Assembly: GCA_013140455.1 (NCBI GenBank)
Contig: JABFSU010000039.1
Span: 1 to 64,000, forward strand
DNA from: Nitrospira sp.
Lineage (GTDB): Bacteria; Nitrospirota; Nitrospiria; Nitrospirales; Nitrospiraceae
Reading direction: 5' to 3'
Length of the DNA stretch: 64,000 bases
In this document: piece after piece, positions 4,622-15,390 of the stretch
Layout: every line of letters starts with the position of its first letter
Position numbering within the stretch: position 1 is the stretch's first letter
Notes under the pieces: model-generated
Seen by the model: the letters and a program-made list of their open reading frames with translations, nothing else
Database searches by the model: none
Told to the model about the DNA's origin: nothing
Made by a program: the position numbers and the translations under genes

Positions 4622-5542
4622 CTAGGAGCGAGCGGCCAGCCTGTGTGTCGAAAGAATCATCATCAGGCGGCCGTGCAAGGCGGTGAGATCATCGAGCAGT
4701 TCGATCTTGGTACCGCGAAGGCGGTCTTCAATGGCCCGGGCGCCCTGGCCGCCTATGGCGACAGACCATCGGGTGGCGAGTTGTTCAAGTTGCTGGATGT
4801 GGTGGAGCGTATCAGTCTCCTGCCTCAGCTGGGTGAGGGAGAGGAGGACGAGATCGGGTGAAACCTTCTCACAGAAAGCCGCAAGGTCTGAATAAGGAAG
4901 GTTAGGGCCGAGATAGTAGGCATGGCATCCTTTCGTGGCGGCGATGTAGGCCGCTGCTTGGGCGCCGATCTCATGGGTTTCACCTTCCGGACAGGCGATG
5001 AGGATTCGTGGACCGAATTCATTCACCGGAAGTTGGTTCATGACGGAGAATAACTTCTGCTGAATGATCTTCGTCACGTAGTGTTCGACGGCAACATTCA
5101 AACGGCCTTCGTGCCAGAGCTCTCCGATGCGCCGCTGTAACGGAAGTAAAATACGCTGAAGGGCTTCTTCAAATGGAATCACGGCCACGGCACCGTTGAG
5201 TTTTCTTTCGAAGGCCGCCTTGTCGAGCGGATCGAGCGATCCTACTAAATCATCGAGCAGGCGTTCGTGCGGTTTCTGTTCTTCCGGAGGAACCGGAGTC
5301 GCGAGTCGCATGCGAGCGACAAGCGCATCATGTCCCTCTGCTGCCAGTCCACCGATCGTAGCGCCTTGCTCCATCTGTGCTTTCACAAACCGGAGAAGTG
5401 CCACTTCCTCATCGCTATATTCTCTATAGCGGTTCGAGCTTCGTGACGGTTTGACGAGCCCGTATCGCCTTTCCCAGACCCGAATCACATCCTTTGACAG
5501 GCCCGTGAGTTTCGCAACTCTATGAATTCTATGAGTATTCAT
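4622..5542 (-). CDS. MerR-family regulator with B12-binding domain (CarH/LitR-like photoreceptor regulator)
   Basis: MerR HTH (RVAKLTGLSKDVIRVWERRYGLVKPSRSSNRYREYSDEE) plus W-x9-EH (LWHEGRLNVAVEHY) and the cobalamin His motif (CPEGETHEIG). Start set at MNTHRI because the longer ORF start (5584) overlaps the promoter. Confidence 0.88.
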   Translation of the reverse strand: MNTHRIHRVAKLTGLSKDVIRVWERRYGLVKPSRSSNRYREYSDEEVALLRFVKAQMEQGATIGGLAAEGHDALVARMRLATPVPPEEQKPHERLLDDLVGSLDPLDKAAFERKLNGAVAVIPFEEALQRILLPLQRRIGELWHEGRLNVAVEHYVTKIIQQKLFSVMNQLPVNEFGPRILIACPEGETHEIGAQAAAYIAATKGCHAYYLGPNLPYSDLAAFCEKVSPDLVLLSLTQLRQETDTLHHIQQLEQLATRWSVAIGGQGARAIEDRLRGTKIELLDDLTALHGRLMMILSTHRLAARS

Positions 5543-5555
5543 GGTGACGTTATCC

Positions 5556-5584
5556 ATTATATTCATGCGTCCAATGTTTGTCAA
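5556..5584 (-). promoter_or_regulatory. Sigma70-type promoter of the carH-like gene (TTGACA-N17-TATAAT)
   Basis: Minus strand: TTGACA at 5584-5579, TATAAT at 5561-5556, 17-nt spacer containing ACATTGGAC (5577-5569). Confidence 0.7.
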
Positions 5585-5603
5585 AGAAAATATATCACAA
5601 CAC

Positions 5604-5632
5604 TTGACACATTGGACGACATGGTTTATACA
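5604..5632 (+). promoter_or_regulatory. Sigma70-type promoter of the divergent cluster (TTGACA-N17-TATACA)
   Basis: TTGACA 5604-5609 and TATACA 5627-5632 with a 17-nt spacer. Confidence 0.7.
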
Positions 5633-5662
5633 TTAGACATACTTGATTCAAACATTGGACAT
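5609..5662 (+). promoter_or_regulatory. Tandem ~11-bp direct repeats, predicted CarH-type operator
   Basis: ACATTGGACG(5609) ACATGGTTTAT(5619) ACATTAGACAT(5630) ACTTGATTCAA(5641) ACATTGGACAT(5652); inverted copy CAAACATTGGAC at 5580-5569. Confidence 0.7.
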
Positions 5663-5681
5663 GCAGCCTACGGAGGTGACT

Positions 5682-5975
5682 ATGGCAACAGCAGCGGGAG
5701 CAAGAGCGGATCAGCCGGAAAGACGAGAAGCGTGTTCTGTGGTCACCCATCAATCAATCTGTAGCCGATGTGGCGGACTGATGGTGAGTGACTTCTGCAT
5801 GGACTTACTGAACAGCACCGGTGAACTGGAGTTTGCTGCACAGCGTTGCGTTCAATGCGGCGAAGTCGTCGATCCGGTTATTCAGCGTAATCGTCATCTC
5901 AGGCAGGACATGCGGACCATTCGAAATGTCCCGAGGCCGGTTGCAAATAACTTCGGGGCGAAGAGTCCCTACTAG
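5682..5975 (+). CDS. Small zinc-ribbon-like protein (two CxxC pairs)
   Basis: RBS GGAGG then ATG at 5682; ICSRCGGLMV...RCVQCGEVVDPVIQRNR; paralogue at 9768-10091. Confidence 0.75.
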   Translation: MATAAGARADQPERREACSVVTHQSICSRCGGLMVSDFCMDLLNSTGELEFAAQRCVQCGEVVDPVIQRNRHLRQDMRTIRNVPRPVANNFGAKSPY

Positions 5976-6029
5976 TTCGTTGTTCCAACCAGGGGTGTTC
6001 CTGGTGTTTCCAAACCAAGGAGGTTTCTC

Positions 6030-6998
6030 ATGCGGAGTCAAACGGTTTTTCAGATCGGATTGGGGGTGGCGTTAGTGGCGGGGACCATATCCATGGCGGC
6101 GGCGGAATCGCCTACCGGCGACAAGGATATGGTGTCGATCCCCAGAGGCGAGTTCACCATGGGGAGTCACGAACATTCCGATGAAGCAGCGCATCAAGTC
6201 GTCCTTGATGCCTATCTCATCGACAAGTACGAAGCCTCGAATGCGCGGTACAAGGAATTCATGAAAGCGACCGGCCATCCGGCACCGGCCTACTGGGACG
6301 ATCCTCGACTCAGTAAGGCTAATCAGCCGGTCGTCGGCGTGAGCTGGACCGACGCCGAGGCGTTCTGCAAGTGGGATGGGAAGCGTCTGCCGACCGAAGC
6401 GGAATGGGAGCGGGCAGCCAAAGGCCCGGACGGTGACAACCATTATCCCTGGGGCCACAAGCTTGATCCGAAGAAAGCCAACTATGGACAGAATGTCGGT
6501 CGCACTATGCCCGTCGATTCCTATCCGGAAGGCGTGAGCGGATTCGGGGTCTACAACATGGCCGGCAATGTGTTCGAGTGGGTGAATGACTGGTATGACC
6601 CGAAGTCCTATAAGGACAGCCAGGCCCTCAATCCCAAAGGGCCTGACAAAGGCTACAACTTTGCTAACCAGGGTGCGGTCAGAGTACTGCGGGGCGGATC
6701 CTGGCTTGCTCCGGAAACATCCTTGCACACGAGCCACCGGTTCTGGAATCAACCGGAGAACAATTCCTACGGTGTGGGGCTCGGATTCCGTTGCGCCAAG
6801 TCGGCACAGACGATTTCCGACGAAGCTATGCAGGCCGGGCGCGATGCCTTCATCCAGGCCTTAGTGGCCATGGGGGCGGAGAAGAATGCCGATGCGATGG
6901 CCTCCATCGAGAAGGCGCTGGCTTCAGAACCGGGCAACAAGGAGTACCTGGCTACCCGTGATCTGATCAAGAAGAGCATGGGCATGAAGAAGAAATAA
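6030..6998 (+). CDS. Secreted SUMF1/FGE-sulfatase-fold protein with C-terminal TPR-like extension
   Basis: Signal peptide; MVSIPRGEFTMGS, RLPTEAEWERAAKG, YNMAGNVFEWVNDWYD, VLRGGSW, GFRCA motifs. Confidence 0.88.
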   Translation: MRSQTVFQIGLGVALVAGTISMAAAESPTGDKDMVSIPRGEFTMGSHEHSDEAAHQVVLDAYLIDKYEASNARYKEFMKATGHPAPAYWDDPRLSKANQPVVGVSWTDAEAFCKWDGKRLPTEAEWERAAKGPDGDNHYPWGHKLDPKKANYGQNVGRTMPVDSYPEGVSGFGVYNMAGNVFEWVNDWYDPKSYKDSQALNPKGPDKGYNFANQGAVRVLRGGSWLAPETSLHTSHRFWNQPENNSYGVGLGFRCAKSAQTISDEAMQAGRDAFIQALVAMGAEKNADAMASIEKALASEPGNKEYLATRDLIKKSMGMKKK

Positions 6999-7066
6999 CC
7001 GCATGGGCTGATTGGGGGGCGGCGTTGCCGCCCCCCTGGGACCGAGCGTCAGGCAGGAGGTCGACG

Positions 7067-8125
7067 ATGAATCTTTCTAACACCATGACGGTAGCACTGT
7101 TTGTCACGGGGGCTCTGCTGCCTATTGGCATAAGCGAGGCGGGAGAATCGTTGATTCCCCAGGATATGGCGTATGTCGCGCACGGGCCATCTGTCATGGG
7201 AATTGACAAAGAAGCCCCTGCCTCAGCGGCCAAGAAATCCACAGCCTACGAGCGACGAATGAATCAGCCCTGGTCCGCCGATGCCTTGAACGATGAGGGT
7301 CCGGCCCACATGGTGTTCCTGGATTCGTATCTGATCGACAAGTACGAGGTATCCAACAAGCAGTTTGGCGACTTCATGCGGGAGAAGGGTCATCCGGCCC
7401 CGGCCTACTGGGACGATCCCCGCTTGAACAAACCCGAGCAACCGGTCGCCGGAGTGAATTGGGAGGATTCCAAGACCTTCTGTGAATATCGTGGCAAACG
7501 TCTCCCAACCGAGGCGGAATGGGAAAAAGCGGCTCGTGGACCCAAAGCCAATCTGTATCCTTGGGGGAATGAATTCGGTCCGGCGAAAGCGAACTATGGC
7601 AGGAATCACGAGGCGACGATGCCGGTAGATTCCTATCCCGAGAGCGTGAGCTACTACGGTGTGTACAACATGGCCGGGAATGTTTTTGAGTGGGTCGCTG
7701 ACTGGTATGACCCCCGATATTACGGTCGGCTCGAGACCATGGTGAATCCGACCGGTCCGGCCAAAGCCATATGGATGGGCGGGACGGGCACTTATGTCGA
7801 TCGGTTGACGGTCGGAGAAAAGCGAGTCATTCGCGGGGGTTCGTGGATCGCACCAGAGGGCACGGTCAAGGCAACCCATCGGTTCTGGAATCATCCGCTC
7901 AATAACAGCTATGGCGTGGGCTTGGGGTTCCGCTGTGCCAAGACCGCCCCGCCGGAAATCGAACAGCAGATCAGGGATGCATACATCACCGCACTTGTGG
8001 AGATGGGACGTGAGCGGTTTTCGGACGCTCAGCAGGCAGTGGCTCGCGGCTTGGCCATTGACCCGAAGAATGTCGAACTGTTGGAGCTCAGCCCGTTGAT
8101 CGAGCAGTCGATGAAGAAATCGTAA
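7067..8125 (+). CDS. Secreted SUMF1/FGE-sulfatase-fold protein (second copy)
   Basis: RLPTEAEWEKAARG, YNMAGNVFEWVADWYD, VIRGGSW, GFRCA; start at MNLSNTMTV downstream of AGGAGG. Confidence 0.87.
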   Translation: MNLSNTMTVALFVTGALLPIGISEAGESLIPQDMAYVAHGPSVMGIDKEAPASAAKKSTAYERRMNQPWSADALNDEGPAHMVFLDSYLIDKYEVSNKQFGDFMREKGHPAPAYWDDPRLNKPEQPVAGVNWEDSKTFCEYRGKRLPTEAEWEKAARGPKANLYPWGNEFGPAKANYGRNHEATMPVDSYPESVSYYGVYNMAGNVFEWVADWYDPRYYGRLETMVNPTGPAKAIWMGGTGTYVDRLTVGEKRVIRGGSWIAPEGTVKATHRFWNHPLNNSYGVGLGFRCAKTAPPEIEQQIRDAYITALVEMGRERFSDAQQAVARGLAIDPKNVELLELSPLIEQSMKKS

Positions 8126-8175
8126 GGAATCGGCACCGTCCGTCGTGACGGTGGGATCGAGACGGAGGAGTAGTC

Positions 8176-8544
8176 ATGACACAGTACACAAGAATTGTCC
8201 TCGTGATTTCACTCAGCGCGCTATTGGGAGCAGCAACGGTTCAGGCCGGACCTCTTGATCCGGACCGCCACCCGCACCCGGACAGCGCCAAGGCGGTTCA
8301 TGAAGCGGAACACGACGTGGATCACGCTTGGGAGATCTATCATCGCGCAGCGCTAGGGGGGACGGTGGCCTCACCGGCTCTGCAGGCTGACATCGAGGAA
8401 CATTTGCACGAGGCCAGAACCCTCGTCACTCAGGCGCAGGAAGCGGCTGAGCGGGGGGATAAGCGCCAGGTAGAGCGGCTGGTCGGCCAAGTCAAAATCC
8501 ATACGACCCACGCCATCGAGGGGAGCAAGGAGCAGAAGAAATGA
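8176..8544 (+). CDS. SmbP-like small secreted His-rich metal-binding protein
   Basis: 122 aa, signal peptide, helical His-rich repeats (HEAEHDVDHAWEIYHRA, IEEHLHEARTLVTQAQEAA). Confidence 0.6.
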   Translation: MTQYTRIVLVISLSALLGAATVQAGPLDPDRHPHPDSAKAVHEAEHDVDHAWEIYHRAALGGTVASPALQADIEEHLHEARTLVTQAQEAAERGDKRQVERLVGQVKIHTTHAIEGSKEQKK

Positions 8545-9386
8545 CACCAGGTCTCAGGAGTAACACAGCTCGCTGGAACATCATGGCCGCGATCGTGGCG
8601 ATTGTCTGTGCTGTTGTGCAGCCATCGGCCATGGCGGCGTCGCCGGCTGCGAAAGAGCTTGATCCGGTCCCCATGGTAACGATACCGGCAGGAGAATTCT
8701 TGATGGGGAATCCCGAGGGAAAAGGTCGTGCCGACGAGTGGCCGCAGCGATCTGTCTATCTCGATGCGTTCGCCATCGATCAAGTGGAAGTCACGAACGA
8801 ACGGTATCTGGCTTTCGTCGCCACCACGGGCCATCGAAATCCTCCGAGTCCCTATGGCACGGGTCCGCTCGTGTCGGCCAAGGGCATTGAGCAGCTCCCG
8901 GTTGTGCAGACGACGTGGTACGACGCCAAGGCCTATTGCAGTTGGGCCAAGAAGCGGCTGCCGACTGAGGCGGAATGGGAAAAGGCGGCACGTGGAACCG
9001 ATGGCCGTCTCTTTCCCTGGGGCAATGAGCCGGCGACCGTTAGGCGCGCCAACTTTGATCGTGAATGGGAAGAGGAGAAGACCTTGCAACCGGTGGGGTC
9101 ATTGCCCGACGGCGATTCGCCCTACGGAGTCAAGGATATGGCCGGCAATGCCCGGGAATGGGTGTCCGACTGGTATGACGCGGACTACTACAAACATGCG
9201 CCGGCCCGGAATCCTCAGGGGCCCGACAAGAAAGGTGTGGTGCGCTCGATTCGTGGCGGCTCGTGGCATAGCCCGCTGGCCGATATCACGACATCAGCCA
9301 GAGGCCGGGGCGGATTTGCCCTCCAGACTCATGGCACAGGCTTCCGTTGTGCCCGGGGTCTCGATGGAGAGGTCCAGCAGAAATGA
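8541..9386 (+). CDS. Secreted SUMF1/FGE-sulfatase-fold protein (third copy)
   Basis: MVTIPAGEFLMGNPEGKGRADEWP, RLPTEAEWEKAARG, DMAGNAREWVSDWYD, SIRGGSW, GFRCARG. Confidence 0.87.
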   Translation: MTPGLRSNTARWNIMAAIVAIVCAVVQPSAMAASPAAKELDPVPMVTIPAGEFLMGNPEGKGRADEWPQRSVYLDAFAIDQVEVTNERYLAFVATTGHRNPPSPYGTGPLVSAKGIEQLPVVQTTWYDAKAYCSWAKKRLPTEAEWEKAARGTDGRLFPWGNEPATVRRANFDREWEEEKTLQPVGSLPDGDSPYGVKDMAGNAREWVSDWYDADYYKHAPARNPQGPDKKGVVRSIRGGSWHSPLADITTSARGRGGFALQTHGTGFRCARGLDGEVQQK

Positions 9387-9767: not shown

Positions 9768-10091
9768 GTGGACTTGAATGGAAGTCCGAACAATCCTCCC
9801 ATTACACCGCACGAGGACGACTACTGTGCGCGTTGCGGCGGACTGATGGTTGTGGAGCACTACATCGATTTGCAGGACGACACGGGGCAGATCGGTCTGA
9901 CGGCGTTGCGCTGCATGAGTTGCGGAGAAGTCATCGACCCCGTCATTCTTCAGAATCGTGAGAGACCGGCGCCCAATCTCTTGTATGGCACGAAGCAGCG
10001 GAAGTACGCGCAGCCAGTCGATCCGGGGGAATCTGGTGGCTCCGGCAACCGGGAAGGCGATGACAGCGGCGGAGCATCCCGGCACAATTGA
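9768..10091 (+). CDS. Small zinc-ribbon-like protein (paralogue of 5682-5975)
   Basis: YCARCGGLMVVEHYIDL...LRCMSCGEVIDPVILQNR. Confidence 0.72.
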   Translation: MDLNGSPNNPPITPHEDDYCARCGGLMVVEHYIDLQDDTGQIGLTALRCMSCGEVIDPVILQNRERPAPNLLYGTKQRKYAQPVDPGESGGSGNREGDDSGGASRHN

Positions 10092-10144
10092 CCCGTGACC
10101 CGCCGGGCAGCCAGGAGTGTTTCTGTGAATGAGGAGAGGCGATC

Positions 10145-11062
10145 ATGAACGTGGTGGTGACAGGCGGAACGGGATTTATCGGTCGGCCCCTCTGTACGGC
10201 GCTTCGCCGGGACGGTCATACCGTCACGCTCCTGACGCGCAGGCCGGCAGAAGCCCATCACGTATTCGGTCGTGCGGTAGCCGTTGTTGAGTGGAATAGT
10301 CGAGAGAGGGGATCCTGGGAGAAGACTCTGGAGGCGGCCGATGCCGTGATCAACCTGGCCGGCGCTCCGATTGCCGATGCCCGCTGGACCACTGCGCGGA
10401 AGCGCCTGCTCATCGACAGCCGGGTGTCGACGACTCGCCTGTTGGTTGAAGCCCTGTCCCGCCGGTCCTCTAAACCCCGCGCGCTGATCAGCGCGTCGGG
10501 CATCGGCTACTACGGTGCGAGCGACGATCGCATCCTGGATGAGGGGGCCGTCCGCGGTCAGGGATTTCTGGCTGACCTCTGCCTTGAGTGGGAAGCGGCA
10601 GCGTTGGCGGCGGCATCGTTCGGAACTCGTGTGGTGATCTTGCGGACCGGAATGGTGCTTGAACAAGACGGCGGTGCGTTGCCCAAGATGCTGTTGCCGT
10701 TTCGGCTGTTCGCGGGCGGTCCGATCATGCCGGGCACGCAGTGGGTGTCCTGGATCCATCGGCGCGATCACATCGGTGTGATCCAGTGGGCGCTTGCCAC
10801 GTCGAGCGTCTCCGGTCCCGTCAATACCGTCGCCCCCGGCGCGGTGACGATGGAGACGTTCTGCGACGAGCTCGGACGAGTACTTCATCGCCCTTCCTGG
10901 CTGCCGGTGCCAGGGTTCGCACTCAAGGCAGCTCTGGGGGAATTGGGGACGTTGATGACGACCGGACAGCGGGTCGGTCCGGCGAAAGCGCTCGCGGGCG
11001 GCTATACGTTTCAGTATCCAACCCTGGAGCCGGCGTTGCGGGCGATTCTCACGAAGGCGTGA
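10145..11062 (+). CDS. TIGR01777 family NAD-dependent epimerase (YfcH/SulA-like)
   Basis: MNVVVTGGTGFIGRPLCTALRRDGH...SASGIGYYG...MLLPFRLFAGGPIMPGTQWVSWIHRRDHIG. Confidence 0.92.
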   Translation: MNVVVTGGTGFIGRPLCTALRRDGHTVTLLTRRPAEAHHVFGRAVAVVEWNSRERGSWEKTLEAADAVINLAGAPIADARWTTARKRLLIDSRVSTTRLLVEALSRRSSKPRALISASGIGYYGASDDRILDEGAVRGQGFLADLCLEWEAAALAAASFGTRVVILRTGMVLEQDGGALPKMLLPFRLFAGGPIMPGTQWVSWIHRRDHIGVIQWALATSSVSGPVNTVAPGAVTMETFCDELGRVLHRPSWLPVPGFALKAALGELGTLMTTGQRVGPAKALAGGYTFQYPTLEPALRAILTKA

Positions 11063-12572: not shown

Positions 12573-12995
12573 ATGCGCGCACAGCCGGTCGGAGCAGATA
12601 TCAAAATATGGGGCGGGCTGTTTTTGATCGTCGGCACGATGGATCTGATCATCATCGTGTTGTTTCCCGCCTATGCGCTCAAGCTGTTCGGGACCAGTGT
12701 GGCGGGGCCCGCCTCGTTCCTGATCAAGCTCCACTCCCCTGCCGTGCATCTGTTGATCGGTTACGGGTTTCTCTGGCTGCGCCCGTGGGCCTGGGGTTTG
12801 AGTCTGGCCTATGCCGGGTTCGGCATTGTGAGCGAGACGATGAATCAGCTCGCCTTTGGATTTCATGGCGTCCGTTCGGGGTTCATCGCCACGACTCTTC
12901 TGTTTGCCCTGTATCTCATCCGGCGACGTACGGTCTTTGTCGATGAGCCGATGTCCGGCAACAAACCGAAACGGGCCTCACAGGAGTTGCTCTGA
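12573..12995 (+). CDS. Hypothetical membrane protein
   Basis: 140 aa with several TM segments; overlaps the photolyase start (TGATG). Confidence 0.65.
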   Translation: MRAQPVGADIKIWGGLFLIVGTMDLIIIVLFPAYALKLFGTSVAGPASFLIKLHSPAVHLLIGYGFLWLRPWAWGLSLAYAGFGIVSETMNQLAFGFHGVRSGFIATTLLFALYLIRRRTVFVDEPMSGNKPKRASQELL

Positions 12996-14440
12996 TGCGT
13001 GGCCTCGTCTGGTTCAGACGGGATCTCCGACTGCTCGATCAACCGGCGCTGACGGCGGCCTGTCAGGAGTGCGATAAGGTGCTACCGTTTTTTGTGTTTG
13101 ATGAGCCGCTGCTCCAGTCCCGTGAGTTCGGTTCCGCCTGCGTGAACTTCATGCTGGGTTGCCTCCAGGAATTGTCGGCATCACTGGCCGGCCGGGGACT
13201 CGCGTTGCAGTGGCGACGGGGTGAACCCGTGGAAGCAGTGGTGCAGGCCGCGCGAGAATGGAAGGTCGACGTCGTCTATTGGAATCGCGACTATGAGCCT
13301 GTGGCGATCGAACGTGATCGCCGGGTGCAGCTCGCGCTTGCCGAACAGGGTATCCGTACCATGACGTTCAAAGATCATGTGGTGTTTGAGGCGGAAGAGA
13401 TCCGGGGCGCCACTGGAGATCCGTTGCAACGGTACAGTGCCTATCGTGCGCGCTGGTGGGCCAAGTGGCAGGCTTCGAAACCGTCACCTCTGGCGAGCCC
13501 CAAGCTCAAGACATCGACCGTGGTTCCATCGCTATCCGCCCCGCGTGCTCTTCCTTCTCCGGTAGAACTAGGGTACGACCGGGTCGTCCCATGGATCAAT
13601 CCGGGCGAGCGGCAGGCGCAGATGCGGCTGCAGGAGTTTCTCGGGAAATCTGTCCACACGTATGGTGATGGGAGAAACCGGCCGGGTGTGGACGGGAGTT
13701 CGCGTCTCTCTCCGCATTTCCGTTTCGGCACACTGTCGGTTCGCACCGCTGTTCATGAAGCCCTGGCTGCTCTCGCGAAAGGCAGGCGGGTGTCGAGGGC
13801 GGACGTGCTCATCTGGATCGATGAGCTGGTCTGGAGAGAATTTTTTCAGCAAGTGCTCTCAGCCTTTCCCCGGGTGGTGAAGGGTCCGTTCCGCGACGTG
13901 GCGGTTCCTCCTGTCCGCACACCGGGGTTTGAACGGGACCGGTTGTTTCAGGCCTGGTGTCAGGGAAGAACCGGTTTTCCGATCGTGGATGCGGGCATGC
14001 GGCAGTTGAATCAGACGGGATGGATGCACAATCGGGTGCGGATGATCGTGGCCTCGTTCCTGATCAAAGATCTGCGGATCGACTGGCAAAGCGGCGAGCG
14101 GTATTTCATGCAGCACCTGCTGGATGCCGATGTGGCGGCGAACAATGGAAACTGGCAGTGGTGTGCTGCAACCGGGACGGACGCGATGCGCGGGTATCGT
14201 ATTTTTAATCCGGCGCTGCAAAGCAAGAAATTCGATCCGGATGGTCTCTACCTCCGTGCGTACCTGCCGGAATTGGCGAACGTAACGGGTAAGTGGATTC
14301 ATGAGCCGCATCTGATGACTCCCGATGAGCAGGATCGGGCCGGATGCCGGATCGGTATCGAATACCCCTCGCCTCTTGTGGATCACGCGCAGGCCCGCCG
14401 GGAGTATCTGGATCTCGGCAAACAGACGGTGACGACATGA
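12995..14440 (+). CDS. phrB: Deoxyribodipyrimidine photolyase / cryptochrome family
   Basis: RGLVWFRRDLRLLDQPAL; DGSSRLSPHFRFGTLSVR; ELVWREFF; GNWQWCAATGTDAMRGYRIFNPALQSKKFDPDG. Confidence 0.95.
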   Translation: MRGLVWFRRDLRLLDQPALTAACQECDKVLPFFVFDEPLLQSREFGSACVNFMLGCLQELSASLAGRGLALQWRRGEPVEAVVQAAREWKVDVVYWNRDYEPVAIERDRRVQLALAEQGIRTMTFKDHVVFEAEEIRGATGDPLQRYSAYRARWWAKWQASKPSPLASPKLKTSTVVPSLSAPRALPSPVELGYDRVVPWINPGERQAQMRLQEFLGKSVHTYGDGRNRPGVDGSSRLSPHFRFGTLSVRTAVHEALAALAKGRRVSRADVLIWIDELVWREFFQQVLSAFPRVVKGPFRDVAVPPVRTPGFERDRLFQAWCQGRTGFPIVDAGMRQLNQTGWMHNRVRMIVASFLIKDLRIDWQSGERYFMQHLLDADVAANNGNWQWCAATGTDAMRGYRIFNPALQSKKFDPDGLYLRAYLPELANVTGKWIHEPHLMTPDEQDRAGCRIGIEYPSPLVDHAQARREYLDLGKQTVTT

Positions 14441-15390
14441 CGACCGGACCGCTCCGTCTCGGGATCAGCCGCTGTCTCCTCGGAGACCAAGTCCGGTTCG
14501 ACGGGGGGCATAAGCGCGACAATTTTCTGACCGATGTGCTCGGCCCCTACGTGGAATGGGTCCCCGTCTGTCCGGAGGTTGAGGCAGGACTGGGGACTCC
14601 TCGCGAGGCGATGCGGCTGGTGGGCGATCCGCAGAAGCCTCGACTCGTGACGATCAAGAGCGGGACAGATCACACACGCGCCCTGGAGACGATGACCACG
14701 CATCGTATTGCGGAACTCAAAGAGCTGGATCTGTCCGGCTTTGTCTTCAAGCGGGGTTCGCCAAGCTGCGGAGTCGAGCGGGTGCGCGTCTACACGGGGC
14801 AAGCGATGCCGAGCCACAATGGCGTCGGGGTTTTTGCACGGGCCTTCACCGAGCATTTTCCGCTGATTCCGGTCGAGGAGGAAGGGCGGCTCTGTGATGC
14901 GCCGTTGAGAGAGAATTTTATCGAGCGAGTCTTTTGCTATCGCCGCTACCAGGATCTGCTTCAGAACGGAGTCACGAGGCAGGCGGTGGTGCGATTTCAC
15001 ACGATCCACAAGTATCTATTGCTGGCCCATAGTGCACCGCACTATCAAGCCCTCGGTCGCCTGGTCGGCCAAGCGGAGCACTATCGACCCAAGGAGCTGG
15101 CCCTCAAGTACGGGGAGCTGTTCATGAAGGCGTTAGCCGTGAAGGCCACAGTCCGCAAGCATGTCAATGTGCTGCAGCACATGCTGGGCTACTTCAAGAC
15201 GCAATTGGGGGCCCCGGAAAAAGCAGAGTTGTTGGGCGTGATCAGTGATTACCATCAGCGTCTGACGCCATTGATCGTGCCGCTCACGCTGATCAAGCAT
15301 TACGTGCATCTCTTCGACGTGGGCTATATCCGTGAGCAGGTCTATCTCAATCCGCATCCGAAGGAGCTGATGCTCCGGAATCATGTGTAG
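14437..15390 (+). CDS. DUF523/DUF1722 protein
   Basis: LRLGISRCLLGDQVRFDGGHKRD (DUF523) and YHQRLTPLIVPLTLIKHYV...VYLNPHPKELMLRNHV (DUF1722); ATGA overlap with photolyase. Confidence 0.92.
   Translation: MTTGPLRLGISRCLLGDQVRFDGGHKRDNFLTDVLGPYVEWVPVCPEVEAGLGTPREAMRLVGDPQKPRLVTIKSGTDHTRALETMTTHRIAELKELDLSGFVFKRGSPSCGVERVRVYTGQAMPSHNGVGVFARAFTEHFPLIPVEEEGRLCDAPLRENFIERVFCYRRYQDLLQNGVTRQAVVRFHTIHKYLLLAHSAPHYQALGRLVGQAEHYRPKELALKYGELFMKALAVKATVRKHVNVLQHMLGYFKTQLGAPEKAELLGVISDYHQRLTPLIVPLTLIKHYVHLFDVGYIREQVYLNPHPKELMLRNHV

What the first reader, a model, noticed from the sequence alone, without database searches (positions are those of the whole stretch)
5556..5662. Divergent back-to-back promoters overlaid by ~11-bp-phased ACATTGGAC repeats next to a B12/MerR regulator
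Sequence shows five tandem units at 5609, 5619, 5630, 5641 and 5652 (ACATTGGACG/ACATGGTTTAT/ACATTAGACAT/ACTTGATTCAA/ACATTGGACAT). They run from the -35 (TTGACA 5604-5609) through the -10 (TATACA 5627-5632) and beyond. An inverted copy (CAAACATTGGAC, 12 nt identical) lies in the spacer of a perfect opposite promoter (TTGACA-N17-TATAAT, 5584-5556) driving the regulator. Established: T. thermophilus CarH binds ~11-bp direct repeats over a promoter and releases on light exposure of adenosylcobalamin. Inference: this is the operator for both autoregulation and control of the cluster. Five units would exceed the three I recall for T. thermophilus, suggesting a different oligomer stoichiometry.
Basis: partly seen in the sequence, partly recalled or inferred. 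Interest (0 to 1): 0.88.

Follow-up and report, generated by a model that had tools for sequence, protein, structure and literature searches.

The report
Light-switch (CarH) operator in Nitrospira
A vitamin-B12 light sensor in the nitrifying bacterium Nitrospira sits back-to-back with a sunlight-protection gene cluster, and the repeated DNA words between them are almost certainly where the sensor binds; the switch type is known, but I found no earlier description of it, its layout or its target genes in nitrifiers.

Summary
The sequence facts in the finding are exact, and both promoters and the inverted 12-nt copy are there. Only three of the five "units" are real repeats: 5609 (9/11), 5630 (10/11) and 5652 (11/11), spaced 21 and 22 bp. 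Units 5619 (7/11) and 5641 (5/11) fail the published CarH repeat rule nnnnTnnACAn, which ACATTGGACAT fits. The regulator is CarH/class I LitR-like: MerR plus B12-binding domains, T. thermophilus CarH as best PDB match, and AdoCbl signature residues, with W131, H142 and H177 equivalents invariant in 60 orthologues. The operator is conserved in 68 distinct carH upstream regions. When the third repeat is lost it reappears 11 bp nearer, several independent times, and extra operators sit at other cluster starts. So this is very probably a genuine CarH operator governing carH and a long photoprotection cluster (photolyase, RudS, fatty-acid-modifying genes) without carotenoid genes. More than three units does not imply a new stoichiometry: B. 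megaterium has four, M. xanthus three full plus two pseudorepeats. New variant of a known kind; binding and light response are untested.

The parts
4622..5542 (-). carH-like regulator (MerR HTH + B12-binding four-helix + Rossmann domains), conserved start ATG 5542-5540
5556..5584 (-). carH promoter TTGACA-N17-TATAAT
   Evidence: 12/12; conserved in relatives
5578..5588 (-). CarH-type repeat containing the carH -35 (TTCTTTGACAA)
   Evidence: TnnACA; exactly 11 bp from the next repeat in 59/65 relatives
5567..5577 (-). CarH-type repeat in the carH promoter spacer (ACATTGGACGC)
5604..5632 (+). cluster promoter TTGACA-N17-TATACA
   Evidence: -35 exact in 61/68 relatives, TATACA in 29/35
5609..5619 (+). 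repeat DR1 (ACATTGGACGA, one base off the rule)
5630..5640 (+). repeat DR3 (ACATTAGACAT), overlaps the -10
5641..5651 (+). pseudorepeat in slot 4 (ACTTGATTCAA); a full repeat in this slot in about a dozen relatives
5652..5662 (+). repeat DR5 (ACATTGGACAT), downstream of the predicted start site
5672..5676 (+). Shine-Dalgarno-like GGAGG before the first cluster gene
5682..5975 (+). first gene of the cluster, small zinc-ribbon-like protein (ZR1); name is by eye from its CxxC pairs, no Pfam match
6030..9386 (+). three SUMF1-like genes (6030, 7067, 8541) and a small gene (8176)
   Evidence: first two by Pfam; 8541 by resemblance and synteny
12995..14440 (+). DNA photolyase, best model 8-HDF type
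14437..15390 (+). RudS (TudS-DUF1722), tRNA 4-thiouridine desulfidase family
   Evidence: PMC11417400
16351..23509 (+). CMAS, DUF2878, DUF1295, DUF6134, lipocalin, amine oxidase, DUF1365, CMAS genes; probable continuation of the light cluster

Best explanation
The 5556-5662 region is a divergent CarH operator. [quoted passage not shown] Light cleaves the Co-C bond, CarH comes off, and RNA polymerase transcribes carH and a photoprotection cluster running from 5682 at least through RudS and perhaps to 23509. Shown here by sequence: repeats, promoters, protein family, cofactor residues, conservation, synteny. Inferred from CarH of Thermus, Bacillus and myxobacteria: dark binding, light release, repression. 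Also inferred: strong repeats 22 bp apart can be read by the two DNA-binding domains of one head-to-tail dimer, which in the T. thermophilus complex contacts the non-contiguous DR1 and DR3.
For: Protein: MerR + B12 domains; T. thermophilus CarH is the top PDB match over residues 16-305 of the reading frame searched; NCBIfam CarH is the best model. AdoCbl light signature GxxW, EH, GxxH, GxxxP (PMC11796333) present; W131, H142, H177 equivalents 60/60, H132 and E141 59/60. DNA: ACATTGGACAT fits the published repeat nnnnTnnACAn (PMC9304148). 68 distinct upstream regions keep both promoters and repeats. Slots 1-3-5 in 40 loci, 1-3-4 in 7, 1-3-4-5 in 2; in all 9 loci that lack slot 5 but have a strong third repeat (score 9 or more), it is at 37/38, one 11-bp step nearer; the slot-4 label needs 6 changes on the CarH tree, 4 forced by well-supported branches. 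On the carH side two TnnACR lie 11 bp apart in 59/65. Extra arrays in 10 of the scanned loci (857 kb) lie just before other ZR1 or SUMF_a genes, plus one on the far side of carH in L052. Arrays go with carH: 14 of 27 carH+ versus 1 of 34 carH- genomes. carH and photolyase co-occur in the genus (19 both, 5 discordant, 13 neither, p = 2e-5). Two genomes with photolyase/RudS but no carH also lack the array and the front of the cluster.
Against: No binding, light or transcript data. The NCBIfam CarH score is far under its curated cutoff (157.8 vs 400). Neither adenosyltransferase family (PF01923, PF02572) was found in this assembly, though PF01923 is in 56 of 61 genomes searched, so this may be an assembly gap. 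Some relatives keep carH with only one or two recognisable repeats on the cluster side. Whether the whole run to 23509 depends on this promoter is unknown (gaps of 381 and 168 nt).
Confidence: 0.87

Rival explanations
1. Same protein and same operator, but the physiological signal is the supply of adenosylcobalamin rather than light: the regulator represses when AdoCbl is plentiful and lets go when it is scarce.
For: AdoCbl is needed for DNA binding by known CarH proteins, so its supply would matter as well; this assembly shows no adenosyltransferase of two families.
Against: The target set is photolyase, RudS and genes like those of the light-induced Pseudomonas operon, not B12 metabolism apart from a CbiX-like gene; the complete light-response signature is present.
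Confidence: 0.07
2. The regulator binds these repeats without using B12, as CarA of M. xanthus does, and is released by a partner protein or by reactive oxygen, as class II LitR is released by a LOV protein.
For: CarA-type and class II LitR relatives exist with comparable operators or target genes.
Against: Full B12 module with invariant ligand His, Trp and Glu-His across 60 orthologues; no LOV or CarS-like gene noticed among the cluster genes annotated here, though no dedicated search was made.
Confidence: 0.04
3. The repeats are ordinary promoter sequence or sites of another factor and not the operator of the adjacent regulator.
For: TTGACA and TATACA themselves fit TnnACA, so part of the signal is promoter consensus; in a single sequence the repetition is only mildly unusual.
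Against: DR5 and the repeat in the carH spacer are outside the promoter hexamers and still conserved; slots 4 and 5 swap in 11-bp steps; the arrays go with carH across genomes.
Confidence: 0.02

Closest known systems
Thermus thermophilus CarH and its operator
   Same: 11-bp repeats nnnnTnnACAn over a -35; same domain plan and cofactor residues
   Different: Three contiguous repeats there; here strong repeats 21-22 bp apart with slot 2 empty and a pseudorepeat in slot 4; inverted copies on the carH side; no carotenoid gene seen in the cluster
Bacillus megaterium CarH/LitR operators
   Same: More than three repeats (four, or three plus a pseudorepeat) overlapping -35 or -10
   Different: Tandem, contiguous repeats; carotenoid targets
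Myxococcus xanthus / Cystobacter CarH (and CarA) operator
   Same: Five slots mixing full repeats and pseudorepeats (DR1-dr2-DR3-DR4-dr5), one including the -35
   Different: Different slots occupied; carotenoid operon; CarS antirepressor in that system
Pseudomonas class II LitR light regulon (PhrB, RudS, UfaM)
   Same: Similar light-induced gene set
   Different: That regulator keeps only one of the two B12-binding domains, uses TGTACA-N12-TGTACA sites, and P. mendocina PmlR2 is released by a LOV protein

Membership tests
CarH / class I LitR photoreceptor | N-terminal MerR domain plus four-helix and Rossmann B12-binding domains | tested here: met
CarH / class I LitR photoreceptor | Wx9EH motif and lower-axial His (AdoCbl light signature GxxW, EH, GxxH, GxxxP) | tested here: met
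   residues W143, E153, H154, H190 counted from ATG 5542
CarH / class I LitR photoreceptor | NCBIfam CarH equivalog cutoff (400 bits) | tested here: not met
   157.8 bits, far ahead of the next model. This is a cutoff for a narrow named equivalog; it counts against the strict name, not against working like a CarH
CarH / class I LitR photoreceptor | AdoCbl-dependent DNA binding that is lost in light | not testable with these tools
   needs purified protein
CarH operator | 11-bp direct repeats nnnnTnnACAn overlapping a promoter | tested here: met
   DR3 and DR5 full, DR1 with ACG; carH side TTGACA and TGGACG 11 bp apart
CarH operator | Three or more contiguous full repeats | tested here: not met
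   Slot 2 empty in all 68 loci, slot 4 degenerate in the window; mapped operators with one or two full repeats plus pseudorepeats are known, so this is not strictly required
[quoted passage not shown] TGTACA-N12-TGTACA sites | tested here: not met

The most novel reading that the evidence does not exclude
Nitrospira CarH reads an operator whose strong repeats lie two helical turns apart, as head-to-tail dimers or paired tetramers spanning the whole promoter, and with it puts carotenoid-free photoprotection (photolyase, tRNA 4-thiouridine removal, membrane-lipid genes) and its own near-leaderless mRNA under direct light control in nitrifiers.
Probability: 0.3. Interest if true: 0.6.

Novelty: new variant of a known kind. 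Interest (0 to 1): 0.5.

Why it matters
If true, many Nitrospira sense light directly through B12 and switch on DNA, tRNA and membrane protection, which would make the documented light sensitivity of nitrifiers testable at gene level. The 68 natural operators, in which slots 4 and 5 have swapped several times, are a ready data set on how CarH oligomers tolerate gaps between repeats. I found no paper describing CarH in the genus Nitrospira in the held full-text library; the one hit for both words concerns Leptospirillum.

Tried and rejected
Five equal repeats: rejected. -35 in phase with the array on the + strand: rejected for most loci (9-bp offset), but 11 bp in six loci and on the carH side. 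Other CarH targets in the genome: the two-repeat pattern finds none; a 15-mer with up to 3 mismatches is uninformative (98 hits versus 65 in the reversed control). AMO family search for comammox status: control empty, no conclusion. Missing adenosyltransferase as evidence against AdoCbl use: weakened by the relatives. The papers on the B. megaterium and P. putida regulators are not held. First extraction of upstream regions was wrong for minus-strand loci and was redone. Single-sequence shuffling gave only weak significance, so the case rests on conservation.

Full report
What is there. The window belongs to a Nitrospira-type genome (G000, 3.79 Mb; nearest named relative on the regulator tree is Nitrospira sp. 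CG24D). Every coordinate in the finding is right. The array holds three good repeats at 5609, 5630 and 5652, spaced 21 and 22 bp; the units at 5619 and 5641 match ACATTGGACAT at only 7 and 5 of 11 positions. The published CarH repeat is nnnnTnnACAn (PMC9304148; given as nAnnTnnACAn in PMC8156234). ACATTGGACAT and ACATTAGACAT fit the first form, and ACATTGGACGA is one base off.

The regulator. It has the MerR and both B12-binding domains, its best solved relative is T. thermophilus CarH over nearly the whole length, and it carries the four-part AdoCbl light signature reported for CarH-type photoreceptors (PMC11796333). Across 60 full-length sequences the Trp, the His of the Glu-His pair and the cobalt-ligand His are invariant. 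The NCBIfam CarH equivalog cutoff is not reached, so the strict name is not earned by that rule, although no other model comes near.

Conservation. 75 loci were fetched from named genomes and 30 from unnamed relatives; 68 distinct upstream regions were compared. Both promoters are kept: TTGACA-17-TATACA toward the cluster, and a TTGACA-17-(TATAAT-like) promoter toward carH. Measured from the cluster -35, repeats lie at about +5, +26 and +48 in 40 loci. In 7 loci the third repeat is at +37/38 instead of +48; in two (including Nitrospira moscoviensis) both are filled; a few further loci without slot 3 also use +38. Whenever slot 5 is empty and a strong third repeat exists, it is one 11-bp step away. 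On the CarH tree the slot-4 label needs six changes, four of them forced by well-supported branches, so the 11-bp lattice is real even though the window's own unit 4 is degenerate. Slot 2 is never a repeat; its place is taken by promoter spacer and -10. Mean information is 1.65-1.78 bits per position in the repeats, 0.83 in the stretch between the two promoters and 0.32 after the array.

Chance. Within one sequence the repetition is only mildly unusual (67/2000 shuffles). Genome-wide the two-repeat pattern occurs only here, with zero hits for the reversed pattern in 61 genomes. Arrays occur in 14 of 27 carH-bearing genomes and 1 of 34 others (p = 1e-5); the exception (G026) contains none of the window's cluster genes around the hit and may be chance. 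In loci where the cluster is split by other genes, a further array appears just before the next ZR1 or SUMF_a gene; one further array (L052) lies on the far side of carH, probably with another carH unit. Genomes G024 and G027 keep photolyase, RudS and CbiX but show no carH, no array and no first half of the cluster.

Target genes. Downstream of the + promoter the first gene is a small protein with CxxC pairs, followed by SUMF1-like genes, an NAD-dependent epimerase, a photolyase (best model 8-HDF type), RudS, a CbiX-like gene, then two CMAS methyltransferases, DUF2878, DUF1295, DUF6134, lipocalin, flavin amine oxidase and DUF1365. Gene spacing is tight except for gaps of 381, 168 and 208 nt, so a single transcript is plausible but not shown. 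The set resembles the light-induced Pseudomonas operon under class II LitR (PMC9758184), and RudS is known from light-responsive operons (PMC11417400). No carotenoid gene was recognised among them.

Mechanism. By analogy with characterised CarH proteins, the dark AdoCbl form represses both promoters and light releases it (inference). The repeat pair on the carH side (TTGACA and TGGACG, 11 bp apart) points to autoregulation. In T. thermophilus one head-to-tail dimer contacts the non-contiguous DR1 and DR3 (PMC9304148), 22 bp apart; the 22-bp spacing of strong repeats here fits that contact pattern, but which oligomer binds cannot be told from sequence. One of the two glycines reported as important for tetramer assembly appears conserved (60/60) while the other position is not glycine, as in many myxobacterial homologues (the residue numbers G160 and G192 that I used to find these positions are from memory).

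Novelty. The kind is known. New, as far as the held literature shows, are its presence and conservation in Nitrospira, the 21/22-bp layout with interchangeable slots 4 and 5, and a photoprotection target without carotenoid genes. Limits: no experiment; genomes are mostly metagenome bins; the repeat matrix was trained on the same loci, though the TnnACR counts use only the published consensus.

Noticed in passing
window 5540-5561, minus strand: The carH -10 ends 13 nt before its ATG, and 10-13 nt in most relatives: the carH mRNA is probably leaderless or has a leader of only a few nt.
   Followed up: partly
L093, carH at 10001-10870 and upstream cluster: A relative whose photoprotection cluster is 74-99% identical to the window's has a CarH only 52% identical (DBD 68%, rest 44%) on the same operator layout: the regulator seems to have been exchanged.
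   Followed up: partly
G036:C53, G008:C17, G005:C71, G025:C279: Two or three CarH genes a few kb apart in one genome, with arrays near several of them.
   Followed up: no
G000 whole assembly: No corrinoid adenosyltransferase of PF01923 or PF02572 found, while 56 of the 61 genomes searched have PF01923; probably missing from the assembly.
   Followed up: partly
window 5682-9386: The conserved front of the cluster (small CxxC protein plus SUMF1-like genes) has no known role in light protection; its steady place behind the CarH operator is unexplained.
   Followed up: no
L115 (G024:C1): Photolyase gene with an in-frame TAG in a genome without a carH match.
   Followed up: no
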